46,278 nucleotides of DNA from a virus: IMG/VR virus record IMGVR_UViG_3300001918_000028, positions 1 to 46,278 of that record. One strand, written 5' to 3'. Of this stretch, positions 1-45,883 are shown piece by piece (within the stretch, counting starts at the first letter, position 1; the number at the start of each line of letters is the position of its first letter). Both the position numbers and the translations under genes were made by a program. Below the pieces are notes generated by a model. The model was not told where the DNA came from. It ran no database searches and was given only the letters and a program-made list of their open reading frames with translations.

Positions 1-1689
1 ATGACCCGGAGCGAGGCAGCGCACTTGCGTGGCAAGCCGGGATTTCATTTCTCGATACAGCTCGCTGGGATGTGTCATTCTCGGACGAAATCGATTCGGG
101 GATCCCGACGCCGTATGTCAGCTTCCGCCCTACCGACCCCCAAAGAGGCCAAACCAACGGAGCGGCCAATTGTGCCGCTCAGCGATCGGCGTACCGAAGA
201 GCTGGTGATCGCATTCGTCGGAGCTGTCGGCTCAGGCGTCTCAAAATCCGCCTCACTCATGGCAGAAATTATGCGCTCCGAGTACGCATATACTGTACAT
301 TCAATACGAATCAGCGAAATAATTAGAGATGCAGCGTCTAGTATTGGCATTTCAGTTCCGGCAAACGGCGTACTCCTTCACGATCGCATAAAGAGACTGC
401 AAAATGCTGGCAATTCTCTCCGAAAAGCCATGTCCACCTCGTATTTGGCGGAGAAAGCAGTAGAGCGGATTGCCGTCGACAGAAAGATTAATGATGGTTA
501 TGCAGAGGTAGAGGCAGGAATTGACCCAATTCCTCTTAGCAGGCGGCGCGTCCACATAATCGACTCTCTTAAACACCCCAGCGAAGTTAATTTGCTGCGC
601 GATGTTTATGGCGATACGTTCTGGCTTATTGGCGTATTTGCGCCGGAGGCTGTTCGAGTTTCGCGCCTGAAGGGGCTTGGACACGCAGCCGGAGAGATGA
701 GCAAGACGATCGAAGATGATGAGTCGGATGGACTCGCGCATGGCCAAAAAGTTAGAGATACCGCACATCAAGCTGATTTTTTTGTGCGCAACGATGCTGA
801 GAACGATGTCGGGTTGCGCAAAACCTTAAGCAGATTCTTGAGGATTTTATTTAACATTGGCGTAAACACTCCAACCCGCGACGAAGCCGCAATGGATAAA
901 GCCACGGCCCAAGCATCAAATTCGGCTTGCATGTCGCGACAGGTCGGTGCCGCAATCTACAGTGAATCTGGAGAGCTTATCGGGATAGGCGCGAATGATG
1001 TTCCGAAAGCGGGGGGCGGATTGTATTGTACCGAAGATGATGAAAAAGATCATCGTTGCTTTAAATGGCGCGACGGGGTCTGCCACAATGACCAACGCAA
1101 GAAGTCATTGTATCGCGCGATACATCAGGAGCTAAAAGGCGCTGGACTTTTGGATCATGCGGCAAGTGAAGATCGTATAACGGAAGCTCTGAAGAAGACT
1201 GACGTTAAAAATTTGATTGAGTATTCCAGAGCGGTTCATGCCGAGATGGAAGCAATACTATCTGTAGCGCGGGCGGGAAAAGCCGGGCTAGTCGGATCGA
1301 CGCTCTATTCCACAACTTTCCCCTGCCACAGTTGTGCGCGTCACGCCGTAGCCAGCGGGATCAATCGTGTATTTTACATTGAGCCATATGCAAAAAGCCT
1401 CGCTGCCGATCTGCATGGTGACGCTGTGTCGGTGTCTGAAGTCGATTTGGGAAAGAAGATGGTTTTCCTTCAGTACGAGGGAGTTGCTCCGAAGAACATG
1501 ATCCGCCTTTTCAAGCATGGGCATGAAAGAAAGGCGGACGGTCGTGCTGTTGTAGCTAGTCAAACGACCGCGACACCTGTCTTCCCAGCGCCCCTCGATG
1601 GCTTCAGCACACGTGAGAAGCTGATCCTCGACAAGGTGAGGACGATCGAGCAAAAAGGGTCACGAGAGCGGGCTCAGGCGGGAGATTGA
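1..1689 (+). CDS. dcdV: Anti-phage dCTP/dCMP deaminase, DcdV/AvcD type
   Basis: Two-domain nucleotide deaminase. The N-terminal P-loop-like region (about residues 70-84, GAVGSGVSKS) resembles the nucleotide-binding domain of DcdV/AvcD. The C-terminal half is a zinc deoxycytidylate deaminase, with His-Ala-Glu at 413-415 and Pro-Cys-x-x-Cys at 441-445. Between the domains is a Cys-containing insert near 340-365. Known family members deaminate dCTP/dCMP after infection and deplete the pool that phages need for DNA synthesis. The frame is open from base 1, but the first ~38 residues look non-native, and the ATG at 115 (residue 39) after a GGGGA-like site is a likely true start. The 5' half is visibly more AT-rich than the phage genes, which suggests separate acquisition. 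The regulatory RNA (AvcI) known upstream of some homologues would lie outside this window. Confidence 0.88.
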   Translation: MTRSEAAHLRGKPGFHFSIQLAGMCHSRTKSIRGSRRRMSASALPTPKEAKPTERPIVPLSDRRTEELVIAFVGAVGSGVSKSASLMAEIMRSEYAYTVHSIRISEIIRDAASSIGISVPANGVLLHDRIKRLQNAGNSLRKAMSTSYLAEKAVERIAVDRKINDGYAEVEAGIDPIPLSRRRVHIIDSLKHPSEVNLLRDVYGDTFWLIGVFAPEAVRVSRLKGLGHAAGEMSKTIEDDESDGLAHGQKVRDTAHQADFFVRNDAENDVGLRKTLSRFLRILFNIGVNTPTRDEAAMDKATAQASNSACMSRQVGAAIYSESGELIGIGANDVPKAGGGLYCTEDDEKDHRCFKWRDGVCHNDQRKKSLYRAIHQELKGAGLLDHAASEDRITEALKKTDVKNLIEYSRAVHAEMEAILSVARAGKAGLVGSTLYSTTFPCHSCARHAVASGINRVFYIEPYAKSLAADLHGDAVSVSEVDLGKKMVFLQYEGVAPKNMIRLFKHGHERKADGRAVVASQTTATPVFPAPLDGFSTREKLILDKVRTIEQKGSRERAQAGD

Positions 1690-8999: not shown

Positions 9000-11156
9000 C
9001 TATCCCCGCACGATGGAGGTGGCGCTGCCGCCGCGGCGGATGGCGTCGAGCGTGGCCGCGCTGGCCTGCCGGACGATCTGCGCCGACAGCACGCGCAGTC
9101 GCGCCTCGACCCCGGCATCGGCGCCGCGCGCGTCGATGGTGATGCTCTGGTTGATCACTGGTCCGCCTGGCGCCATGCCATTGGGCAGCACGGTGCCGCT
9201 GCGGTTCGGCACGAACCATTCGGGGCCGCGCTCGCCCACGATGTAGGGCTGGCCGCCCGCTACCGGCCCGCCCTCGGCGCGGAACAACCCGCCCAGTGCC
9301 GAGCCCAGCCCCGAGAAGATCGAGCCGAAGTCGAAGCCGGCCAGGCTGGAGGTCACCGCCGTGCCGAGCGGCTCGGTGATGGTGCGGCGGACCACGATGC
9401 GGGCGATGTCCTGCAGGATGCCCTGCAGCACCTTCGAGAAACTCTCGCCCTTGATGATCGCGTCCTCAAAGGCCGAGGAGAAGGTCAGGCCGAGTTCCCG
9501 CGCCGTGTTGCTGGTGCGCTCGGTCGCCTGCTGGACGCGCTGCTGGCTGCGCTCCAACTCCTCCAGCGCGGCATTGGCTTCGCGGGAGACGGTCTCGTCC
9601 GGGATGGGGCGGCCGATGCGTTCGGAGCGTTCGACCAGCCGGCCGAGGGTTTCCAGGCGGCGGGTGTAGCGTTCCTGCGCGTTCTCGTTGTTCTGGATTA
9701 GCCGCTCGCGCTCGCGGATGATGTCGTTGATCTCGCGCTCGGCCTCGCGGTCCGGGCGCGGGATGGCGGCCACGCGGCGGGTGGTTCCCTCGATGCGGCG
9801 CAGCGCCTCGTCACGCTCGCGCAGCGCCAGGGTTTCGAGGCGCGTGCGATCGGCGGCGGTGATGCCGCCGGCGGCCTCGGCCTCACGCAGGCGGCGGACG
9901 CGGTCGTCGTACTCGCTGTTGATCCGGAAGCGATCGTCGAGCGCCTTGCGCAGTTCCTCGGCATCGGCGGCGGTGCGGCGGCGACGCGCCTCTGCGGCCT
10001 GGGCAGCGGCGCTCTCCTGCTCGGTGCGCTGGCGCTCGCCGGCCGCCGCCTCCCCGCGGGTGATCTCCTCCTGCAGTTCGGCATACTGGCGGCGGAGTTC
10101 CTCCAGCCGGGCAGCGCGATCCACGCCCGCCTGCTGCTGGGCGGTGCCGACCAGGCCGCCGCGGATCGAGCCGCGGCGGGGCTGCGAGCGGAGGCTGTCA
10201 CGGCCGTCGCTCTCCGCCTCGAGGCGGGCGATCTGGGCGCGCAGCGCCTCGGCCTGGGCGCGGCGGTCGGCCTCCTGCTCGCTGGGCAGCAGCAGGCCGG
10301 AGCCGCGGCGCACCCCGTCCAGCACGCGGGCGGCGCCGGAGAGCGCGCGGGCCAGCGCGTTGGACAGGCCGATCGCCTGGTCGAGCCGGGCCAGGAACTG
10401 GTCGGCGGCAGCCGTCAGCTGTCCGAAGGCGCGGCCGACCGAAAGCGGCGCGCGCTCGAACTCGCCGTTCAGCCGCTCGACCGCGCGCAGCAGAGCGGGG
10501 AACACCGTGTCGGCGGTGAGCTTGCCCTCGGAGCCGAGCTTGCGGAGCTCGCCGATGGAGACGCCGAGCTCGCGCGCCAGCGCCTGCGCCAGGGTCGGCA
10601 GGCCTTCGAGGATGGAGCGCAGCTCGTCGCCCTGCAGGGTGCCCGAGGCCAGCGCCTGCGCCAGCTGCTGGGTGGAGGAGGCGATCTCCTGCTGCGAGGC
10701 GCCCGACGCGATGGCGATGCGCTGCAGGCCGCCGACCAGGGTGGCGACCTGGTCGGAGGTGGCGCCGATCTCGCGCGCCGCGATCGAGAAGCGCGCGAAG
10801 GCGTCCACGCTCTCGCGGACGGCGACGCCGGTCTGCAAGCTGTCGCGATACAGCCGGTCGTAGATCTCGCCGGCACGCTCGACCGAACCCAGGGCGGTAT
10901 TCAGCCGGCCCATCGACTGGGTGAGCGCGTCGCCGGCCACGACCACGGCGCGCAGTCCGGCGGCAAGGCCGGCGATCTGCACGCCACGGACCGCGACATC
11001 CAGCAGGTCCAGCGCGCGGGAGGCGCGGTCGGCACCGCCCTGGATGCGCTCCAGGCTGCGGCTCCCGGTCTCGCCGACCTCGCGCAGCTCCTGCTTGACC
11101 CGGGCGGCGTCGTCCAGCGACAGCCGGACCGAGACGCGGCGGGTGGCGTCAGCCAT
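9000..11156 (-). CDS. Tail tape measure protein
   Basis: A 718-aa protein. The N-terminal tape-measure domain (about residues 55-260) contains TGVAVRESVDAFARFSIA and GGLQRIAIASGASQQEIAS. A long Arg/Glu/Ala-rich coiled-coil region (~290-590) follows, and the Gly-rich C-terminal end contains GLGSALGGLFRAEGGPV and FVPNRSGTVLPNG, typical of this family. It sets tail length and is ejected during infection. It starts 29 nt after the stop of the frameshifted chaperone extension. For phages of this kind the length predicts a medium tail of about 100 nm (rule-of-thumb inference). Confidence 0.92.
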   Translation of the reverse strand: MADATRRVSVRLSLDDAARVKQELREVGETGSRSLERIQGGADRASRALDLLDVAVRGVQIAGLAAGLRAVVVAGDALTQSMGRLNTALGSVERAGEIYDRLYRDSLQTGVAVRESVDAFARFSIAAREIGATSDQVATLVGGLQRIAIASGASQQEIASSTQQLAQALASGTLQGDELRSILEGLPTLAQALARELGVSIGELRKLGSEGKLTADTVFPALLRAVERLNGEFERAPLSVGRAFGQLTAAADQFLARLDQAIGLSNALARALSGAARVLDGVRRGSGLLLPSEQEADRRAQAEALRAQIARLEAESDGRDSLRSQPRRGSIRGGLVGTAQQQAGVDRAARLEELRRQYAELQEEITRGEAAAGERQRTEQESAAAQAAEARRRRTAADAEELRKALDDRFRINSEYDDRVRRLREAEAAGGITAADRTRLETLALRERDEALRRIEGTTRRVAAIPRPDREAEREINDIIRERERLIQNNENAQERYTRRLETLGRLVERSERIGRPIPDETVSREANAALEELERSQQRVQQATERTSNTARELGLTFSSAFEDAIIKGESFSKVLQGILQDIARIVVRRTITEPLGTAVTSSLAGFDFGSIFSGLGSALGGLFRAEGGPVAGGQPYIVGERGPEWFVPNRSGTVLPNGMAPGGPVINQSITIDARGADAGVEARLRVLSAQIVRQASAATLDAIRRGGSATSIVRG

Positions 11157-11185: not shown

Positions 11186-11509
11186 TCAGGGTCCGGGGGG
11201 ATCGGTGCGGCGCGCGGCGCTGCCGGCGGCGAGGCCCATGCGCATGGCTAGGAGCAACTCGGCGGCGGCCCAGCCGGAGGCGCCCATCTCGCGCGCGGTG
11301 GCGAGCGCGGCCGGCATGTCGAGGTCGAGACCGGCCATGGTCGCCGTGGCGCAGGTGGTGCCGGCGGCCCAGGCTGCGGCGCCCTCGACGCTGGCGGGTG
11401 CGTTGGCGGCGTAGGGGCAGGCGAGGCCGCAGTCGCGATCGAGGGCGGCGCAGCCGCGGCAGTAATCAGGGCCCTGGCCGAAATGCCATTCGGCCCGGGC
11501 CCTTAGCCG
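11186..11509 (-). CDS. Tail assembly chaperone frameshift extension (gpT-like part of GT)
   Basis: A reading frame with no start codon of its own near the junction. It is read by a minus-one shift at GGGAAAC (11509-11515) from the upstream chaperone. The fusion would be 231 aa: 124 residues from gene G, then RLRARAEWHFGQ and onward for 107 residues. The extension has a four-Cys cluster (YCRGCAALDRDCGLACPY), perhaps metal-binding, and an Ala-rich helical C terminus. In lambda, GT binds the tape measure and recruits tail tube subunits. The extension ends 29 nt before the tape measure start, as expected. Confidence 0.85.
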   Translation of the reverse strand, partial: RLRARAEWHFGQGPDYCRGCAALDRDCGLACPYAANAPASVEGAAAWAAGTTCATATMAGLDLDMPAALATAREMGASGWAAAELLLAMRMGLAAGSAARRTDPPGP

Positions 11510-11515
11510 TTTCCC
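11469..11515 (-). promoter_or_regulatory. Programmed -1 ribosomal frameshift signal
   Basis: On the minus strand, slippery heptamer G GGA AAC (11515-11509) is read in frame as GAG-GGA-AAC. A 6-nt spacer GGCTAA holds the zero-frame stop. The stem arms GGGCCCGGGCCGAA (11502-11489) and TTCGGCCAGGGCCC (11482-11469) pair over 14 positions with one mismatch around a 6-nt loop. The minus-one frame is open for 107 further codons. Confidence 0.88.
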
Positions 11516-11880
11516 TCCAGGGCCACGGCGGCGACCTGGCCTGTGGCGCGATCCCAGAAGGCGGCGGCCATCTCGTCCATGTCCATCAGGCGTTCGACGG
11601 CTTCGGGGGAGAGCGGAAGCGGCTTGCCGGCGGCGTCGCCCACACCTTCCCAAGCGGTGACGGCGTGGCGGGCGAGCGCCTTGACTAGGAACGCGAAGGC
11701 GAGACCGCGGGCCATGTCGGGGTCCAGGTCCGCCTCCGCGGCTCGCAGCGCGCCAAGGCGACGGGCCGAGCCGGCCTGGGCGGCGGCCATGACGGCGGTT
11801 GTGACGGGGCGGATTTCCACGCGGACACCGCGCGGCAGGTCAAGCCAGTACGGCTCGACCGGGAGGTCGAGGGTGAGCAT
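11503..11880 (-). CDS. Tail assembly chaperone G
   Basis: A 125-aa protein from ATG 11880 (GGAG 8 nt upstream), starting MLTLDLPVEPYWLDLP. Mostly alpha-helical, with MDMDEMAAAFWDRATG near the C terminus. It lies before the tape measure gene, and its 3' end contains the frameshift signal. Zero-frame termination at TAA 11503-11505 gives the short form, as with lambda gpG. The tail tube gene that normally precedes it directly lies 1.9 kb away because the DUF262 cassette has been inserted. Confidence 0.83.
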   Translation of the reverse strand: MLTLDLPVEPYWLDLPRGVRVEIRPVTTAVMAAAQAGSARRLGALRAAEADLDPDMARGLAFAFLVKALARHAVTAWEGVGDAAGKPLPLSPEAVERLMDMDEMAAAFWDRATGQVAAVALEGNG

Positions 11881-12074: not shown

Positions 12075-13706
12075 ATGGAAGCAGCTGAACGCACGCTTGG
12101 TCAGGTTCTCACCGACCAGATCCGGTATGAGATCCCGCCCTACCAGCGTCCCTACTCTTGGGAGGCCGGCAACGTCGAGCAATTGCTGGATGACGTATGG
12201 GAAGCCTTCCAGGCGAAGGACGAAGAGTACTTCATCAGTTCGCTGATCACGATCGAGAAGAAAAGGGCGGAGCGCTACGAGGTAGTGGACGGCCAGCAGC
12301 GCCTTACAACGCTGAATCTAATTTTCGCGCGCCTCCGCGATGCACTGGATGAGCCAGCGCGGTCGGCTCTTGGCGCAGTCGTGCTGCCGAAGAACGTGCT
12401 GACGGGCGAGGAAGAGGCGCCCCGACTGACCCTACGCGCCAAGGATCAGCCCTTCTTTCGCCGACACGTTCTCGCTGCGATCCCTCTGACCGAGGCAATC
12501 CGCAGAGAAATCGCCAAAGACCAGGACGCGCCCAAGCGTCGCCTCATCGAGAATCTGGAGGTGATTGACGCGTTCCTGGCCGGCAAAAATCAGCAAGCGC
12601 TGAGGCTATTCGCCAACTTCCTGCTGAAGAGCGTCTACGTCGTGTTCGTGACGACCACCTCCCTGCAATCCGCCCATAGGCTCTTCAACGTCCTGAACGC
12701 ACGTGGCGTGCCGCTCTCGAACGCCGACCTCATCAAGAACATGCTGTTCGGAAAGCTTACCGGGAGCGTCGACCGAAGCGCGGAACTCGATGAACGGTGG
12801 CTTGAGCTCGAAGAGACGATTGGGATCGAGCGTATGGACCAGTTCCTCGGCCACCATCGGACTGCGGTGACGGCAGCAAAAGCCCGGAAGACGCTGCAAG
12901 AAGAATACCACCCTCTCATCGCGGCAAGCTCCTCGCCATTCGAGTTTTTGGATGTGGTAACAACCTCGGCGCGGAACTACGTGCGAATCCAGCAGAATGA
13001 GTTCGATGGTGCTACTGCCCGCCGATCGCTGCGGTCACTTCACCGAGTTGAATTCGAAGAATGGGTGCCGCCGCTCCTGGCGTTTCTCAACGCCCCGGTG
13101 CCGGCCATGCAGGAGGGTGAGTTCATCGCCTTGCTGGAAAAAATCACGTATCAAAACTGGGTGCGGCGCCTCGCCTTTACAGCGCGGTTGACGGTCTACT
13201 TTCAGCTCATCAGCGCGCTGCGCACCGGAGCCCCCGCCGAGCAGGTACAAGCGATTTTCCAACAGAACGGCCGCGATGATGAGTTCCGGACACTGCTGGA
13301 CGGTGAGGTTTACGGGAAGCCGTTTGCGCAGGCACTGCTGCTGCGCATTGAGGAGGCGGACCAGGATGAGTCCGTCACCAAGGATTATGGGGGCAAGATC
13401 ACCATCGAGCATGTGCTGCCGCAGGCGCTGAAGGACGCTTACTGGCGCGAGCGCTTCTCGGACGACGCGCATCGGCAGTTCGTGCATCGGCTGGGAAACC
13501 TCGCCCTCCTCGCCGGAACAAAGAATTACCGATCCCAGTATTTCGCGTTCGACCGCAAAAAGGCGATCTATAAGGAGCGGAACAACAAGGTTTCGTTTGA
13601 TACGACCAAGCGAATTCTCGACGAACCCGAGTGGGGTGCCGACGCGATCGCCACAAGGCAGCAGGCCATGATGGAGAGCGCTCTGCGTCTCTGGAGTCTT
13701 GGCTGA
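12075..13706 (+). CDS. DUF262/DUF1524 (GmrSD-like) nuclease, probable phage defence
   Basis: A 543-aa protein. The N-terminal DUF262 (ParB/Srx-fold) domain has IPPYQRPYSWE (20-30) and the hallmark VVDGQQRLTTL (~70). The C-terminal DUF1524 HNH-type nuclease region has ITIEHVLPQ (His-x-x-Pro) and RLGNLALLAGTKNYRSQ near residue 460. GmrS and GmrD domains fused in one chain form type IV restriction enzymes that use NTP to cut modified phage DNA. Related proteins act in other defence systems. It runs against the tail operon between tail tube and chaperone genes and has lower GC, both signs of inserted cargo. ATG 12075 gives the conserved N terminus, although the RBS is weak. Confidence 0.87.
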   Translation: MEAAERTLGQVLTDQIRYEIPPYQRPYSWEAGNVEQLLDDVWEAFQAKDEEYFISSLITIEKKRAERYEVVDGQQRLTTLNLIFARLRDALDEPARSALGAVVLPKNVLTGEEEAPRLTLRAKDQPFFRRHVLAAIPLTEAIRREIAKDQDAPKRRLIENLEVIDAFLAGKNQQALRLFANFLLKSVYVVFVTTTSLQSAHRLFNVLNARGVPLSNADLIKNMLFGKLTGSVDRSAELDERWLELEETIGIERMDQFLGHHRTAVTAAKARKTLQEEYHPLIAASSSPFEFLDVVTTSARNYVRIQQNEFDGATARRSLRSLHRVEFEEWVPPLLAFLNAPVPAMQEGEFIALLEKITYQNWVRRLAFTARLTVYFQLISALRTGAPAEQVQAIFQQNGRDDEFRTLLDGEVYGKPFAQALLLRIEEADQDESVTKDYGGKITIEHVLPQALKDAYWRERFSDDAHRQFVHRLGNLALLAGTKNYRSQYFAFDRKKAIYKERNNKVSFDTTKRILDEPEWGADAIATRQQAMMESALRLWSLG

Positions 13707-13801
13707 CGAGTTCGTCCACCACGCGCGAGGCCCTGCACGAGTCTTCATGCCGGCTCGTTATCAGAACGACGGCTCGACCACGCTTCCTCGTGTTCTGTCG
13801 C

Positions 13802-14755
13802 TTACGCGTACTCCGTCCCTGCCTGCTGGTTCCGCAGCACCGCCGTCATCATCCGCGTCGCCGTCGCGTTGAAGGCGGCCCTGAAGTCGAAGCTGGCCTC
13901 CACTCCGGCTGGCCCCTCGATCGGCGTCTTGGCCAGCGCGAGATAGACCTCGTGCAGTGTGATGGTCAGGCTGCGGTTGGCGTCGATGGTGAAGGCCAGG
14001 GCGAATTCCGCCGAGGTGCCGGCCTGCGCCTGCGCCAGCAGCGTCGTGTTTTCGAAGCGCACCGTGATCTGGCCGGTGCAGCGGGCGATGCCTGGATCCA
14101 CGCCCTCGACCCGGCGATCGGCGCGGATGGTGCGCACCGCCTCCATCCCGTTGGCATAGGTGAGCCGCGCGCCGGTGACCTGCGCCAGGGCCACGCTGCT
14201 GCGCGTAATGCTGCCCTGTGCCTTGTTGAATGCCGTGTAGGCGGCGCTGGTCGGCGTGCCGCCTGACGTGGCGCCTGTGCGCACCGAGCCCTGACCCATG
14301 AGCCCGAAGGTCGCCGTCGCCGCGCCGGTCGGTGTGAAGTCCATTTCCAGCGTGTCGGCGCGCACGCCTGTGCAGACGTCGAAGCTTGGCACGTCAGGAT
14401 AGCCGATCTCCATCGCGTTGCTCGGCAGCGCGACCGCGCCCGAGCCGAAGGTATGGATGAAGTTGGTGGTGCCCGTGGTGGTGGGCGCGCCCAGCAGCAG
14501 CCGCAGCCAGTGGCCGATGTTGATCAGGTCGACCGGTACCACCGCCTGGCCGGCAACCGTCACCGTGTCGAGGAAGGGCGCTGCCGGATCGCGGTTGCTG
14601 CCCACGCCGATGACATCGGCATCCAGCAGCGGCTGCTCCGCGCCGAGGTCGCAGGAGAGGAACGGCATGCGCCGCCAGTTGCTGCCGGGGGCGGTGCCGT
14701 AGGTGGTCTCGGGCAGCATTAGCAGGCGGCAATTCGCGCCGATGGCACGGGGCAT
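13802..14755 (-). CDS. Major tail tube protein
   Basis: A 317-aa protein starting MPRAIGANCRLLMLPETTYG. The N terminus plus the central NAMEIGYPDVPSFDVCTGV region and alternating Thr/Ala/Gly beta-rich sequence match phage tail tube proteins of alphaproteobacterial siphoviruses. It follows the tail terminator gene by 21 nt. In the ancestral operon it would directly precede the chaperone G gene; here the DUF262 gene intervenes. The C-terminal half is Ig-like in composition. Confidence 0.8.
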   Translation of the reverse strand: MPRAIGANCRLLMLPETTYGTAPGSNWRRMPFLSCDLGAEQPLLDADVIGVGSNRDPAAPFLDTVTVAGQAVVPVDLINIGHWLRLLLGAPTTTGTTNFIHTFGSGAVALPSNAMEIGYPDVPSFDVCTGVRADTLEMDFTPTGAATATFGLMGQGSVRTGATSGGTPTSAAYTAFNKAQGSITRSSVALAQVTGARLTYANGMEAVRTIRADRRVEGVDPGIARCTGQITVRFENTTLLAQAQAGTSAEFALAFTIDANRSLTITLHEVYLALAKTPIEGPAGVEASFDFRAAFNATATRMMTAVLRNQQAGTEYA

Positions 14756-26132: not shown

Positions 26133-26990
26133 TCACTCCGCCAGAGCGTAGATGGTGAAGGAGCCCTTCGCGCCCGTCTTGTTCGGGCCGACCATCCGCT
26201 CGCGCGACTTCACCTCGACCGCGTGGCCCTTCTTCTTCAGCCCGGCGAAGAAGCCGCGGACCGTGTGCTGCGCCCAGCCCGTCGCCTCGGCGATCTGCGC
26301 GACCGTGGCGCCCTCTGGGCGGCGCAGCATGGCCAGCACCTGCTCCTGCTTTGTGCCCTCGCGCGGCTTGCGCGGCGCGGCGGGATCCCGCGCGACGCGG
26401 GCGGGCTTGCCGGCGAGCAGGGTGCGCAGGGCCTCCATCGGCGCGTCAAGAGCGCCGATCATGTCGCCCTCGCGGTTGGCCTCGTCATCCCAGGCGGCGA
26501 GCGCCGCCGCGGCAGCGTCGCGCAGGCTGGTGCGCGGCGCGGCGGCGCGTGCCGCGAGGGCCTGGTCCAGCATCGCGATCTCCTCCGTCAGGGGCGCGGC
26601 CTGGTCGGCTTCGGCGACCTTGGCTTCCTGTGTCGCGGGCTCCGCGGCGGGCGCCACCGTGGGCGCCGTGTCGGGCACGCTGCCCTCGATGCCCGAGCAG
26701 TCGGGCTCGCCGGCCTCCACGTCGCCCTCGTTCGGGTCGATGCCGATGGCGCGCAGCCCCTCGTCGGTGATGCGCGCCACGATCCAGGTGCCGTCCTCGT
26801 CCTGCCGCCAGCCCAGCCCGACGAAGTCCCGCGGCGCGTTGATCTCGGTGAGCAGGTTGTTCTTGATCAGGCTGCGGAAGACCGCGTTGCGGGCCGCGGC
26901 CGGCAGGGTCTTCGGCGCGCGGGCCAGGCCCATCTCGTGCTGCGCCGCGGCGCTGAGGATCACGCGCTGGCTGTCGGAAAGCTTGGTCAT
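26133..26990 (-). CDS. DUF3489 domain protein (phage HTH)
   Basis: A 285-aa protein. The N-terminal ~85 residues (KLSDSQRVILSAAAQHEMG) form a DUF3489-associated helical domain. A long Ala/Pro/Glu linker spans ~95-200. The C-terminal ~75 residues (GTKQEQVLAMLRRPEGATV, then a helix-turn-helix ending KKKGHAVEVKSRERMVGP) are the DUF3489 winged-HTH domain. Probably a transcription regulator or DNA-binding accessory factor of phage DNA metabolism. ATG 26990 marks the start of the conserved N terminus and has GGAGAC upstream. Confidence 0.8.
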   Translation of the reverse strand: MTKLSDSQRVILSAAAQHEMGLARAPKTLPAAARNAVFRSLIKNNLLTEINAPRDFVGLGWRQDEDGTWIVARITDEGLRAIGIDPNEGDVEAGEPDCSGIEGSVPDTAPTVAPAAEPATQEAKVAEADQAAPLTEEIAMLDQALAARAAAPRTSLRDAAAAALAAWDDEANREGDMIGALDAPMEALRTLLAGKPARVARDPAAPRKPREGTKQEQVLAMLRRPEGATVAQIAEATGWAQHTVRGFFAGLKKKGHAVEVKSRERMVGPNKTGAKGSFTIYALAE

Positions 26991-27085
26991 CGTGGTGGTC
27001 TCCGGTTCCGGGCGCCGGTCATCGGCCCCTACTGCCGGGAGCCCCGCCGGCGCTGCCGGTCGGGGCGGTGCGGGAGTGGCCCGCT

Positions 27086-27322
27086 TCATTCGGCCCATTC
27101 GCCGCGCTTCAGATAGGAGTCCGTCACCCGCGCCAGCAGGCTGTTCCAGTGCTGCAGGCTGGCATGCGCGCCCCAGAGCACCGTCTCGGGATCCGCGCCG
27201 AAGTGGTCCGCGCTCATCTGCTGAAGCTCGGCGACCATCGCGTCGAAGCGCGCCTTCTCGGCGAGGAAGGCTTCGAGGCTGCGTTCCTGGTTGCGGGCTG
27301 CGCGGGCGGTGCGGTCGGTCAT
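27086..27322 (-). CDS. Small helical phage protein, 78 aa
   Basis: Starts MTDRTARAARNQERSLEAF. It is rich in charged and Ala residues, probably a coiled coil up to ~45, then HFGADPETVLWGAH and a short C-terminal helix. No family recognised. It carries the second copy of the 30-bp element 31-60 nt upstream of its ATG, and ACGGAGAC as ribosome binding site. It lies between the first methyltransferase gene and the DUF3489 gene. Confidence 0.6.
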   Translation of the reverse strand: MTDRTARAARNQERSLEAFLAEKARFDAMVAELQQMSADHFGADPETVLWGAHASLQHWNSLLARVTDSYLKRGEWAE

Positions 27323-27352
27323 GCTGGTCTCCGTCTGTTGCTGCAGGGAATC

Positions 27353-27382
27353 CCCTGCGTGTGACGGACCATTCGCGCTGTG
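27353..27382 (-). promoter_or_regulatory. Repeated 30-bp upstream element, copy 2
   Basis: Partner of 26016-26045. The transcript from this copy could also form a 6-bp hairpin GCAGGG-GATT-CCCTGC (27343-27358) between the element and the start codon, which copy 1 lacks. Confidence 0.55.
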
Positions 27383-27421
27383 GCGCGCACGAGCCAAGCA
27401 AGATGCAGCGTCGTGAGATTG

Positions 27422-28690
27422 CTATGATTCGGCGGTTTGGATCACACCATGATCGACGATGCTGCGGGCCGTGGCGACATCGGCAAAGATGCGATCATCA
27501 CCCTCCAGAACCGCGGCTTCGCCGGTCGTCTCCTGCCAGCGGCGCACGATGACGTCTGCATAGGCAGGGTCGATCTCCAGCAGCACAGCGCGCCGCCCCG
27601 TGCGCTCCGCCGCGATCATGGTGGTGCCCGAGCCGCCGAAGCAGTCGAGCACCGTGTCGCGCAGCTTGCTGCTGTTGCGGATGGCGCGCTCCACCAGCGC
27701 CACCGGCTTCATGGTCGGATGCAGGTCGTTGCGCGCCGGCTTGTCGAAGTGCCAGACATTCCCCTGGTCGCGCGCACCGCACCAGTAGTGCTGCGCGCCC
27801 GCCTTCCAGCCATAGAGCATCGCCTCGAATTGCTGGTGGTAGTCGGCGCGGCCGAGCGCGAAGGTGTTCTTCGCCCAGATGATGGTGCTGGACCATTTGC
27901 CGCCCGCCTCCTGCCAGACGCGATGCAGCGTCGGCCATTCCGAGGAGGACATGCAGACGTAGCAGGCGCCCTTCGTCACCGAGAGCAGGTTGGCCAGCGC
28001 GGGGCGCAGGAACTCGGGAAAGCCGCCACCGAGCGCGTCGTTGGCGATGGTCATCTTGGCGGCGGTGCCGCCCTCGTAGGCCACGTTGTAGGGCGGATCG
28101 ACGAAGCCCATGTCGGCGAGGTGGCCGGCGCCGAGGGCGCGCTGCACGTCGACCAGCTTCGTCGCGTCGCCGCAGAGAAGGCGGTGGTCGCCACAGCGCC
28201 AGAGGTCGCCGGCGCGGGTGACCGGAACCACGGGCGGTGGCGGCGCCTCGTCGGCATCATCGCCGAGGCCGGCATCGGCAGCTGCCAGCAGCCGGTCGAG
28301 CTCCATGCCGGAGAAACCGAGCACGTCGAGGTCGACCACCGCCTCGTCGCGGATGCGGGCGATCTCCGCAGCCAGCAGTGCCTCGTCCCAGCCCGAGTTC
28401 AGCGCGATCTGGTTGTCGGCCAGGCGGAGCGCACGTGCCTGCGCGGGTGAGAGGTGGCCGAGCCGCAGCACCGGTAACGTGGTGAGCCCGAGCTGCTTCG
28501 CAGCCATGACGCGGCCGTGCCCGGCGATCAGCACGCCCTCGGCGTCAACCAGGACCGGATTGACGAAGCCGAACTCGGCGATTGACGCCGCGATCTGCGC
28601 CACCTGGGACGGGGAGTGGGTCCGGGCGTTTTCCGCGTAGGGGACCAGCCCCGCCACCGGCAGGGTGGAGACAGCGAGATCAGGCAGCAT
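27422..28690 (-). CDS. ParB-like / DNA methyltransferase fusion (DPPY type)
   Basis: A 422-aa protein from ATG 28690. Residues ~8-95 form a ParB/Srx-like domain (VLIAGHGRVMAAKQLG). Residues ~160-395 form a beta-class N6-adenine/N4-cytosine methyltransferase with motif IV DPPYNV (198-203) and motif I VLDCFGGSGTTMIAA (~345-360). The target sequence is unknown. Its ATG lies within the end of the second methyltransferase gene (11-nt overlap). No restriction endonuclease is adjacent, so it is more likely a solitary phage methylase that protects phage DNA or tunes expression than half of a restriction-modification pair. Confidence 0.88.
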   Translation of the reverse strand: MLPDLAVSTLPVAGLVPYAENARTHSPSQVAQIAASIAEFGFVNPVLVDAEGVLIAGHGRVMAAKQLGLTTLPVLRLGHLSPAQARALRLADNQIALNSGWDEALLAAEIARIRDEAVVDLDVLGFSGMELDRLLAAADAGLGDDADEAPPPPVVPVTRAGDLWRCGDHRLLCGDATKLVDVQRALGAGHLADMGFVDPPYNVAYEGGTAAKMTIANDALGGGFPEFLRPALANLLSVTKGACYVCMSSSEWPTLHRVWQEAGGKWSSTIIWAKNTFALGRADYHQQFEAMLYGWKAGAQHYWCGARDQGNVWHFDKPARNDLHPTMKPVALVERAIRNSSKLRDTVLDCFGGSGTTMIAAERTGRRAVLLEIDPAYADVIVRRWQETTGEAAVLEGDDRIFADVATARSIVDHGVIQTAES

Positions 28691-30152
28691 TCGCGGTGAC
28701 CTCCTGCCTCGTTGCGGCGACCGCGTCGTAATCGCGACCGTCATCGGCCAGCGTCACCGGCATGTCCGGGTGCAGCATCCGCCACCGCGCCACGGCCAGG
28801 TCGACATAGGCCGGCGCCAGCTCGATCGCCCGCACGCGGCGACCGGTGCGCTGGCCGGCGATGATGGTGGTGCCGGCGCCGCCGAAGGGCTCAAACACCA
28901 TGTCGCCCTCGTCGGCATAGGCACGCATCAGGAAGTCCGGCAGCGCGACGGGGAACACCGCGGGATGCTCCGTCTCGATGCCGCGAGCCTTGTGCCGCGT
29001 GATGCGCAATACGTTGTCTGGGATCCGGGTCTCCTGCACGCCCTGGCCGGCATGCTGCCATTCGCCGACGGTGCCGTCCTTGGCGCGGAGGCCACCCTTC
29101 TCGGAGTTGACGTGTCCCGCCCAGCGGCAGGGGATGATCTTGTTGGGACGCCGGGCCTCGCGATTGAAGTGGAACAGAAGCTCGAAGGCGGGCGACAGCC
29201 GCCCGTTCCAATCGCCCGGCAGGCCGGGCCCCTGGTCCCAGGTGTAGAGCCCGAAGCGGCGCCAGCCGCGGGTGCGCATCCAGTCGAGCCAGCCGGCCCA
29301 ATAGGGCTGCCATTCATTGTCGCGATGGATCAGCCCGAGGTTCACCAGCACCTGGCCATCGGGCCGCATGGCCACGTCGAGATGCTGGAAGACGCCCTGC
29401 ATCAGAGCGTCCCAATCCGTGACGCCGCCGGTGGTGTAGTCCCGCTGGTTCCCGTAGGGCGGGGAGGTGAACAGCAGCGCCGCGCGGTCCTCACCCATCA
29501 CGCGCGCCACTGAGGCGGCGTCGGTGCTGTCGCCGCAGAGCAAGCGATGATCGCCCAGTAGCCAGAGATCGCCTGGACGAGTGACGGCCTGGCGCGGCGG
29601 CTCCGCATCGGCGTCGGCGGGGTCCTCCGCCGGTGCATCCTCGGTGCCTGCCGCGCCCGCCGCGCCGCCCCCCTCGGCGGGATCCGCGGACAGAGCCTCG
29701 GGCGCGTCGCCGTCGGACACGGCATCTCCAGCCGCCGCGAGGATGTCCGCGAGTTCCCCCGCCGAGAAGCCGAGTGCGCCGAGGTCGATGTCCGGCACCG
29801 CCTGCACCGCGGCCAGCGCGTCCCGGAGCATCGCCTGGTCCCAGGTCGCATTCTCCGCGATGCGGTTGTCGGCGAGGCGCAACGCCTCCTTTTGCGCCGC
29901 CGACAGGTGTCGCAGCACGATCACAGGCACCTTGGCCATGCCGAGCGCGGACGCCGCCTCGAGCCGGCCGTGGCCGGCGATCAGCACGTCGTCCTCATCG
30001 ACCAGCAGCGGGTTGGTGAAGCCGAAGGCCAGCATGCTGGCCTTGATCTGCTCCAACTGCTCGGCGCTGTGCACGCGGGCGTTGCCGGCATGTGGGCGCA
30101 GCTCCGCCACCGGACGCAGCAGGATCTTCGCCGCCATCCAGGGGAGCGTCAT
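28680..30152 (-). CDS. ParB-like / DNA methyltransferase fusion (TSPPY type)
   Basis: A 490-aa protein from ATG 30152. The N-terminal ParB-like domain (~10-100, VLIAGHGRLEAASALG) is about half identical to that of the neighbouring methyltransferase. The catalytic half has TSPPYGNQ (motif IV) and PFGGAGTTIIAGQRTG (motif I). An Ala/Pro/Asp-rich linker joins them. TSPPY suggests N4-cytosine methylation or another adenine target. The two genes appear to be an old tandem duplication with diverged catalytic centres, overlapping by 11 nt. The long 353-nt leader upstream contains two related dyads (30326-30376). Confidence 0.88.
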   Translation of the reverse strand: MTLPWMAAKILLRPVAELRPHAGNARVHSAEQLEQIKASMLAFGFTNPLLVDEDDVLIAGHGRLEAASALGMAKVPVIVLRHLSAAQKEALRLADNRIAENATWDQAMLRDALAAVQAVPDIDLGALGFSAGELADILAAAGDAVSDGDAPEALSADPAEGGGAAGAAGTEDAPAEDPADADAEPPRQAVTRPGDLWLLGDHRLLCGDSTDAASVARVMGEDRAALLFTSPPYGNQRDYTTGGVTDWDALMQGVFQHLDVAMRPDGQVLVNLGLIHRDNEWQPYWAGWLDWMRTRGWRRFGLYTWDQGPGLPGDWNGRLSPAFELLFHFNREARRPNKIIPCRWAGHVNSEKGGLRAKDGTVGEWQHAGQGVQETRIPDNVLRITRHKARGIETEHPAVFPVALPDFLMRAYADEGDMVFEPFGGAGTTIIAGQRTGRRVRAIELAPAYVDLAVARWRMLHPDMPVTLADDGRDYDAVAATRQEVTANAA

Positions 30153-44031: not shown

Positions 44032-44534
44032 CACGCGCCACCAGATCCAAAGCCGGCACCCCGCCGGCGCCGACCATCCCCGCCATCCCGCCGGCCGACG
44101 TGCTCGGCCGGCTGGCGGCGCTGAAGACCACCGCGACGTCGGACCTGAAGCAGCAATGGCGGGAGCTCTTCGCCGCCGAGCCGCCGCCCTACAATCGTCG
44201 TTTCCTGGAGAGCCGCCTGGCCTACCGGATCCAGGAACTGGCCTATGGCGGCCTGAAGCCCGAGACGATCCAGCGCCTCGAGGCCCTGGGTGAACAACTC
44301 GATGGCGGGAACCCCGTCCTCCGCCGCATCCGCGGCGACGATAAGCCGATCACCGGCACGCGGCTGATCCGCGAGTACCAGGGCGTCGAGCACAGCGTCA
44401 CCGTGCTGCACGACGGCTACGAATATCAGGGCCGCCCCTACCAGTCGCTCTCCTCCATCGCGCGCGCCATCACCGGCACGCGCTGGAATGGCTGGCTGTT
44501 CTTTGGCCTGAAGAACCGGAGGGGCACGGCATGA
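44028..44534 (+). CDS. DUF2924 protein
   Basis: A 168-aa protein. The DUF2924 core includes LKQQWRELFAAEPPPYNRRF (about 40-59), LAYRIQELAYGG and the C-terminal GYEYQGRPYQSLSSIARAITGTRWNGWLFFGL, a winged DNA-binding-like end. Function unknown, but almost always found beside a serine recombinase of this type, so probably a partner in site-specific recombination or its control. Both ends overlap neighbours in ATGA. Confidence 0.85.
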   Translation: MTRATRSKAGTPPAPTIPAIPPADVLGRLAALKTTATSDLKQQWRELFAAEPPPYNRRFLESRLAYRIQELAYGGLKPETIQRLEALGEQLDGGNPVLRRIRGDDKPITGTRLIREYQGVEHSVTVLHDGYEYQGRPYQSLSSIARAITGTRWNGWLFFGLKNRRGTA

Positions 44535-45883
44535 AGCGCAAGCCGACCGCCGACGCCGCCATGCCGGCCACCGTCAGGAAGATCCGTGCCGCGGTGTACA
44601 CGCGGAAGTCGAGCGAGGAAGGGCTCGACATGGAGTTCAACTCCCTCGACGCGCAGCGCGAGGCCTGCGAGGCCTACATCACCAGCCAGCGGTCGGAGGG
44701 CTGGGTGCTGGTCCGCGATCGCTACGACGACGGGGGCGTTTCTGGCGGGACACTGGAGCGGCCCTCGCTGCGCCGCCTGCTGGCGGACATCGAGCGTGGG
44801 CTGATCGATGTGGTGGTGGTCTACAAGATCGACCGGCTGTCGCGCGCGCTGATGGACTTCGCCAAGCTGGTGGAAGTCTTCGACGCGAACAGCGTGACCT
44901 TTGTGTCGGTGACGCAGTCCTTTAACACGACCACCAGCATGGGCCGCCTCACGCTGAACATCCTGCTCAGCTTCGCGCAGTTCGAGCGCGAGGTCATTGG
45001 CGAGCGCATCCGGGACAAGGTGGCCGCGTCTCGGGCGCGCGGGATCTGGATGGGCGGCTTCGTGCCGCTCGGCTACGACGCGCGGGATCGCAAGCTGCTG
45101 GTGAATGAGGCGGAAGCGGCGCTGGTGCGGCGCATCTTCGAGGGCTTCGTCGAAACGGAATCCGGCACGAAGCTGGTCCAGGCACTGCGCGCCGAGGGCG
45201 CCACCACGAAGCGCGGCCGCGCTTTCACCAAGAGCGACGTGTATCGGGTGCTGAGCAACCGCACCTATCTCGCCGAGGCGATGCACAAGGGGAAGTCGCA
45301 TCCCGGCGAGCATGCTGCCATCGTGCCCCAGGCGATGTGGGATGCGGCGCACGCCCTGCTGGCGATCAGCCCGAAGACCCGCGCCAACCGCACCCGCCGC
45401 CAGACGCCTTCGCTGCTGCGCGGGCTGATCTTCGGGAGCGACGGGCGCGCCATGTCGCCGACCCATGCGCGGGGGCGCCGCGGGCAGCAGTACCGCTACT
45501 ATGTCAGCCAGTCGGTGCTGAAGGGCAGCGCCGAGGACGGGCCGGCCATCGCGCGCATTTCGGCCGCGGAAATCGAGGGCGCGGTCATCGCTCAGGTCCG
45601 GGGGCTGCTGCGCCAGCCGGAGGTGGTGCTGGGCGCCTGGCGCGCGGCGCGGGCCTCGGCGCCGGACATGACGGAGGACGAGGCCCGGCTGGCGCTGGAG
45701 CGGCTGGACCCGCTGTGGGAGGAGCTATTCCCCGCGGAGCAGGCGCGCATCATCCGCCTGCTGGTCGACCGAGTGGACATCGGGGTGGGCGGCGCCGACG
45801 TGCGGCTGAAGCTGGAAGGGCTGGCCAGCCTGGCACGGGACCTGGCGGCGCCAGCCACTGAACCGGCGAGCGCCGCAGCATGA
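44531..45883 (+). CDS. Large serine recombinase (phage integrase)
   Basis: A 450-aa protein. N-terminal resolvase domain with catalytic Ser27 in YTRKSSEEG, DDGGVSGGTLERP and KIDRLSRALMDF; a recombinase domain (~180-290) and a C-terminal region with FGSDGRAMSPTHARGRRGQQYRYYV, where the zinc-ribbon normally has four Cys but here has none. Joins attP and attB during integration; with a directionality factor it excises the prophage. Shorter C-terminal coiled-coil than classical phiC31-type. ATGA overlaps on both sides. Confidence 0.92.
   Translation: MKRKPTADAAMPATVRKIRAAVYTRKSSEEGLDMEFNSLDAQREACEAYITSQRSEGWVLVRDRYDDGGVSGGTLERPSLRRLLADIERGLIDVVVVYKIDRLSRALMDFAKLVEVFDANSVTFVSVTQSFNTTTSMGRLTLNILLSFAQFEREVIGERIRDKVAASRARGIWMGGFVPLGYDARDRKLLVNEAEAALVRRIFEGFVETESGTKLVQALRAEGATTKRGRAFTKSDVYRVLSNRTYLAEAMHKGKSHPGEHAAIVPQAMWDAAHALLAISPKTRANRTRRQTPSLLRGLIFGSDGRAMSPTHARGRRGQQYRYYVSQSVLKGSAEDGPAIARISAAEIEGAVIAQVRGLLRQPEVVLGAWRAARASAPDMTEDEARLALERLDPLWEELFPAEQARIIRLLVDRVDIGVGGADVRLKLEGLASLARDLAAPATEPASAAA

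What the first reader, a model, noticed from the sequence alone, without database searches (positions are those of the whole stretch)
11186..11880. Textbook -1 programmed frameshift linking tail chaperones G and GT
The minus strand carries G GGA AAC in the right frame, a 6-nt spacer with the zero-frame stop, then a 14-bp stem with a 6-nt loop. The shifted frame stays open for 107 codons and ends 29 nt before the tape measure. Seen directly; the lambda G/GT precedent is established knowledge. Standard gene calling would miss the fusion or annotate the T part with a false start.
Basis: partly seen in the sequence, partly recalled or inferred. Interest (0 to 1): 0.65.

Follow-up and report, generated by a model that had tools for sequence, protein, structure and literature searches.

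The report
Frameshifted phage tail chaperone (G/GT)
A virus of Roseomonas-like bacteria appears to make two versions of its tail-building helper protein by letting some ribosomes slip back one letter at a fixed spot, the same trick as phage lambda; the mechanism is known, but following it suggests that two protein families listed as 'unknown function' are the hidden second half of such proteins.

Summary
On the minus strand, gene G (11880..11503, 125 codons) carries GGGAAAC (11515..11509) in the -1 register, two codons before its stop. A strong hairpin follows, then a -1 frame open for 107 codons that ends 29 nt before the tape-measure gene. Relatives were fetched with the fused protein. In 277 of 279 distinct 500-nt cores an X XXA AAZ heptamer lies exactly 27 nt before the T domain's first conserved Trp codon; both exceptions are broken copies. 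The hairpin is stronger than synonymous recodings of the same peptide and carries a G-C/C-G swap. T almost never has a start codon of its own. So this is programmed -1 frameshifting making G and GT tail chaperones: a new member of a known kind (lambda; Rhodobacter phages, two of which I saw annotated as a join). New here: T is homologous to Pfam DUF7697, and DUF1799 sits at the same place. In 190 alphaproteobacterial genomes 11 of 11 DUF1799 and 7 of 8 DUF7697 places are -1-frame extensions behind a slippery site. T also holds four near-invariant cysteines (278 of 279 cores), a possible metal site. No protein or efficiency data exist here.

The parts
11503..11880 (-). gene G, tail assembly chaperone, 125 codons, zero-frame product
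   Evidence: phrog_313 'Tail assembly chaperone' E=2.2e-13 to residues 9-118
11509..11515 (-). slippery heptamer G GGA AAC
   Evidence: X XXA AAZ in 277 of 279 distinct relative cores
11503..11508 (-). 6-nt spacer; holds the zero-frame stop TAA (11505..11503)
11469..11502 (-). stimulatory hairpin: 6 bp (11502..11497 with 11474..11469), G.A mismatch (11496, 11475), 7 bp (11495..11489 with 11482..11476), loop 11488..11483
11186..11509 (-). -1-frame T extension, 107 residues, stop ends at 11186
11417..11461 (-). four-cysteine cluster of T (T residues C17, C20, C27, C31)
9000..11156 (-). tape measure protein, 718 aa
   Evidence: PF20155 TMP_3 E=1e-50
13802..14755 (-). tail tube protein upstream of G, 317 aa
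   Evidence: PF18906 Phage_tube_2 E=7.2e-51

Best explanation
Most ribosomes translating G stop at TAA and make gpG. A minority, slowed by the hairpin 6 nt downstream, slip back one base on G GGA AAC: the two tRNAs on GGA and AAC re-pair with GGG and AAA. They continue for 107 codons and make the 231-residue fusion gpGT. By analogy with lambda, many gpG and few gpGT coat the tape-measure protein and the T domain brings in tube subunits; both leave the finished tail. Shown here: the sequence anatomy, its conservation, coding constraint on T, constraint on the hairpin beyond the peptide, and near-absence of a T start. Inferred: that the shift happens, its efficiency, and the chaperone role.
For: Heptamer in register in 277 of 279 distinct cores: GGGAAAC 155, AAAAAAC 118, AAAAAAA 3, AAAAAAG 1, always 27 nt before the Trp codon. 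T varies mostly at third codon positions: mean minor-allele fraction 0.066/0.042/0.183 at positions 1/2/3, 71 sequences used of 72. The hairpin is more stable than synonymous recodings: median z -2.9 over 176 distinct regions, 82% below -2, against 5-11% for five control stretches in the same T genes. Column pair 15-46 is C-G 61, G-C 29, G-U 2, U-G 2, unpaired 1 of 95; 84.6% of cells paired against 39-49% when slid; 0 of 500 shuffles reach the paired percentage or the covariation score. No T-frame start codon in the 60 nt before the Trp codon in 270 of 277; only 3 of 277 have any T-frame start within 200 nt with an SD-like run. Placement: tail tube, then G, GT, tape measure. Two relatives annotated as a join. 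Searched without using the fusion, DUF1799 11 of 11 and DUF7697 7 of 8 places show the same layout.
Against: No protein or reporter data. RNAalifold found no consensus on the full 95-row alignment; it found 12 pairs only on a 22-row subset that I chose without the register-shifted rows. 46 of 500 shuffles reach the number of pairs with a change on both sides. In the subgroup with Arg or Ser in the fourth codon after the Trp the stem pairs one base out of register (seen by eye), so the counts treat part of it as unpaired. 4 of 176 hairpins are no better than recodings. Loci were drawn with the fused protein, so conservation is partly selected for. The A-site codon AAC is not the best slipper in E. 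coli (recalled). No sequence match to lambda G or T.
Confidence: 0.94

Rival explanations
1. T is a separate gene with its own start; the overlap with G is accidental.
For: A mechanical ORF list gives a TTG-started 155-aa ORF, 11653..11186; two phage records call T as its own ORF.
Against: 270 of 277 cores have no T-frame start in the 60 nt before the first conserved Trp, and only 3 of 277 have one within 200 nt with an SD-like run. T is conserved from the first codon after the heptamer (R1 invariant in 43 of 43).
Confidence: 0.02
2. G and T were one gene, broken by an indel or a sequencing error.
For: In three contigs (L246, L247, L326) with eight A's, G and T are one open frame. Decayed copies exist (L044, L137, L419).
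Against: The same frame break with the same heptamer recurs in nearly all of 279 cores from many projects and isolates, with T under coding constraint.
Confidence: 0.01
3. In the A-run relatives the frame change is made by RNA polymerase slippage rather than by the ribosome.
For: AAAAAAC is preceded by another A in many relatives (runs of 7 or 8), and long A runs can slip in transcription (recalled).
Against: The window has GGGAAAC, with no long run to slip on, and the hairpin at fixed spacing is shared by both heptamer classes.
Confidence: 0.03

Closest known systems
Phage lambda G/GT tail assembly chaperone frameshift (Levin 1993; Xu 2004, 2013, 2014, known to me from the reference list and passages of PMC5009743; originals not read)
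   Same: Tail-tube gene, G, GT, tape measure order; GGGAAA-type heptamer near the end of G in -1 register (lambda GGGAAAG at nt 398 of G, T 144 aa); T ends at the tape-measure gene.
   Different: No sequence similarity found. T here has a Cys4 cluster; the 144-residue lambda T read contains no cysteine. Here 29 nt separate T from the tape measure; in lambda they overlap. I did not fold the lambda site for comparison.
Rhodobacter capsulatus phages RcKemmy, RcKai and kin (11 records)
   Same: Homologous G and T, same GGGAAAC and spacing, annotated as a two-piece join in the two records I opened.
   Different: Zero-frame G runs about 30 codons past the site (152 codons); T overlaps the tape-measure gene.
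Pfam DUF7697 / PHROG phrog_11212
   Same: 35 and 36 of 43 representative T parts match; the window's T subfamily is homologous to other T's of the set (hhalign 99.3%, E 5e-20).
   Different: The window's own T is below Pfam's cut-off (14.4 of 27 bits). The Pfam model has 52 positions; the window's weak match covers T residues 61-86, so the model seems to lie behind the Cys4 part.
Pfam DUF1799
   Same: Same layout: in-register heptamer directly before the G stop, T in -1 frame, 11 of 11 places.
   Different: No conserved Cys4 motif in the T parts printed (by eye); homology to the DUF7697 type not shown (hhalign 7%), though 6 of 43 T's match it weakly, best E 1.5e-4.

Membership tests
lambda-type G/GT -1 frameshift of tail chaperones | gene pair lies between tail tube and tape measure | tested here: met
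   tail tube 13802..14755, tape measure 9000..11156; unassigned ORFs lie between tube and G
lambda-type G/GT -1 frameshift of tail chaperones | slippery heptamer in -1 register near the end of G | tested here: met
lambda-type G/GT -1 frameshift of tail chaperones | conserved -1 ORF that ends at the tape-measure gene and lacks its own start | tested here: met
lambda-type G/GT -1 frameshift of tail chaperones | upstream product belongs to a tail assembly chaperone family | tested here: met
   phrog_313, E=2.2e-13; Pfam and NCBIfam none at E 0.1 for the fusion
lambda-type G/GT -1 frameshift of tail chaperones | sequence homology to lambda G and T | tested here: inconclusive
   hhalign 0.15% for G, 3.9% for T; the family is described as having low similarity between phages (passage of PMC5009743)
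lambda-type G/GT -1 frameshift of tail chaperones | fusion protein made at low ratio and absent from virions | not testable with these tools
   needs protein data
Pfam DUF7697 (PF24752) | score over the curated cut-off | tested here: not met
   window T 14.4 bits of 27; 0 of 10 host genomes carrying the close relatives match at E 0.001
Pfam DUF7697 (PF24752) | homology to T parts of the set in which 35 of 43 match the model | tested here: met
   hhalign of 9 window-type T's against 22 other T's: 99.3%, E 5.4e-20

The most novel reading that the evidence does not exclude
The T extension of this large, mainly alphaproteobacterial family is a metal-binding domain: the four near-invariant cysteines (C-x2-C ... 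C-x2/3-C-P) right after the frameshift site bind zinc or an iron-sulfur cluster. Only the frameshifted chaperone carries the metal, so tube recruitment depends on it. The same stretch codes both for the hairpin and for the WxF motif next to the cluster. DUF7697 and DUF1799 are thereby explained as T domains.
Probability: 0.5. Interest if true: 0.55.

Novelty: new member of a known kind. Interest (0 to 1): 0.36.

Why it matters
The frameshift itself is textbook. Two by-products are useful. Two Pfam families of unknown function and one unassigned PHROG can be given a likely role, the T half of a frameshifted tail chaperone, and gene callers can be told where to join frames. And the Cys4 cluster makes a testable prediction about how T works, a domain for which no solved relative was found by sequence and none by Foldseek at a significant E-value.

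Tried and rejected
Rfam: no match at gathering scores. tRNA: none. PDB by sequence with the T profile: none at E 1. Foldseek of the T model (mean pLDDT 93.6): PDB best E 5.2; viral library best E 0.59, rank 3 'Tape measure chaperone [Serratia phage Scapp]' at E 2.0, not significant. VIA-align on the 6 chains Foldseek gave: best Z 3.0. AlphaFold places no metal, and I had no coordinates, so cysteine geometry was not tested. First analysis of the DUF loci was wrong for minus-strand hits, which were not turned; one search replaces it. RNAalifold on all 95 rows gave no structure. Rows dropped: 10 of 400 loci are not's count. Seven were seen to end or break before T; the others were not each inspected. 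L080 and L081 (the window itself) and L403 upward were left out. Searches return many of the same contigs, so counts use distinct 500-nt cores. The first motif filter missed 13 loci with W[DEA]F; one search showed all 13 carry AAAAAAC in register, and one search's wider filter admits them. The count of T parts rests on 43 representatives at under 75% identity chosen from 367 before that wider filter.

Full report
What is there. The minus strand carries G (11880..11503), the heptamer GGGAAAC (11515..11509) in the right register, a 6-nt spacer holding the zero-frame TAA, and a hairpin of 6 bp + G.A mismatch + 7 bp with the loop UGGCAU. A -1 frame of 107 codons follows, its stop ending at 11186, 29 nt before the tape-measure gene. 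G matches phrog_313, Tail assembly chaperone; the next gene is a tape measure protein and the tail tube gene lies upstream. In the window only this one of 258 open frames of at least 100 codons has such a heptamer within 12 nt of its stop.

Relatives. Scans with the fusion or alignments of it gave 79 viral loci, 80 bacterial genome loci, 80 viral (largely the same contigs), 80 viral and 80 viral (a few shared). tblastn against annotated phages gave 13 records. Named hosts with near-identical loci are mostly Acetobacteraceae: Roseomonas, Falsiroseomonas, Roseococcus, Siccirubricoccus (titles; the family is recalled for some). Of 400 loci examined, 390 pass the T filter and collapse to 279 distinct 500-nt cores. 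277 of 279 have X XXA AAZ in register exactly 27 nt before the conserved Trp codon. The two that do not are a contig with a stop codon in the site (L044 = L206) and a Humitalea locus where G and T lie on different contigs with foreign sequence at the break (L109; L068 = L119 = L232). One relative has lost the zero-frame stop (L165).

Is the hairpin selected? Random synonymous recoding of the 13 codons, using each locus's own codon usage, rarely does as well: median z -2.9 over 176 distinct regions, 82% below -2. Five control stretches of the same length further into T have medians -0.03 to -0.52 and 5-11% below -2. For the window itself z is -3.5, with 2 of 2000 recodings as stable. On 95 diverse rows the window's stem keeps 84.6% of cells paired against 39-49% for slid versions. 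The second base pair is C-G in 61 rows, G-C in 29 and wobble in 4, with 1 unpaired. That swap separates large groups of relatives, so it may be few events. Against this, RNAalifold gave nothing on all 95 rows and gave the stem only on 22 chosen rows. In the subgroup whose fourth codon after the Trp is Arg or Ser the stem is one base out of register (by eye).

Is T coding, and does it need the shift? T varies mainly at third positions. Upstream of the first conserved Trp, 270 of 277 cores have no T-frame start codon within 60 nt, and 3 of 277 have one within 200 nt with an SD-like run. So T is most likely reached from G.

What T is. The window's T matches no family above threshold. But 35 of 43 representative T parts match Pfam DUF7697 (best E 1.6e-26) and 36 of 43 match phrog_11212, a family with no function given. 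A profile of nine window-type T's aligns to a profile of 22 of the others along 97 columns, E 5.4e-20. Searching 190 alphaproteobacterial genomes with the Pfam models alone, without the fusion, gave 11 places of DUF1799 and 8 of DUF7697. All 11 and 7 of the 8 are the -1-frame partner of a G-like frame, with AAAAAAC, AAAAAAT or GGGAAAC in register; for DUF1799 the zero-frame stop follows the heptamer directly. The eighth is a decayed copy (L419). DUF1799 in phage VarioGold is likewise listed between a tail assembly chaperone and the tape measure (passages of PMC9658991). The only paper found with the word DUF1799 does not contain the word frameshift, and none was found with DUF7697. These families can therefore be read as T halves; their homology to each other is not shown.

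Cysteines. Four cysteines are invariant in 43 of 43 representatives and fit the pattern in 278 of 279 cores; L244 lacks one. The seven DUF7697 places with a heptamer also show a first C-x2-C pair in the T parts printed, with more cysteines behind (by eye, where the print is cut at 75 residues). The pattern C-x2-C ... C-x2/3-C-P resembles zinc knuckles or iron-sulfur sites (recalled). A confident AlphaFold model of T exists (mean pLDDT 93.6), without a significant fold match. Two library searches for tail assembly chaperones with zinc, or with cysteine, gave no listing whose title or abstract start bears on it; I did not open those papers for this point.

Known or new. Lambda-type G/GT frameshifting is described as widely conserved in long-tailed phages (passages of PMC5009743). 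A GeneTack survey measured 6% and 7% for two tail-chaperone genes (passage of PMC3711429). The authors of the Rhodobacter phage paper speak of the frameshift 'usually found' in these genes (passage of PMC8601537). RcKemmy and RcKai carry the join. Hence: a new member of a known kind, well supported by comparison, without product data.

Noticed in passing
L246 (= L327), L247, L326: Eight A's instead of seven put G and T into one open frame. Either a homopolymer error or a true reversed form in which slippage would make the short product.
   Followed up: partly
L109 and L119 (Humitalea rosea DSM 24525; L039 and L068 appear to be the same): G and T lie on different contigs, with foreign sequence joined at the spacer or stem, as if something had inserted between heptamer and hairpin.
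   Followed up: partly
L044 (= L206), L165, L137, L419: Damaged copies: nonsense in the slippery site, lost zero-frame stop, indel in G, decayed T.
   Followed up: partly
window 13035..13748, minus strand: A 237-aa ORF between tail tube and G without any Pfam, PHROG or NCBIfam match.
   Followed up: no
window 1..1689, plus strand: 562-aa ORF at the window edge with a cytidine deaminase / MafB19-like deaminase domain in its second half.
   Followed up: no
window 44531..45883, plus strand: Large serine recombinase, suggesting integration by this enzyme.
   Followed up: no
window 27422..28744, minus strand: DNA methylase with a weak ParB-like N-terminus, next to a DUF3489 protein (26133..27401).
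   Followed up: no
L082, L084 and many A-run relatives: Zero-frame G runs well past the slippery site (about 30 codons), so that stretch is read in two frames.
   Followed up: no
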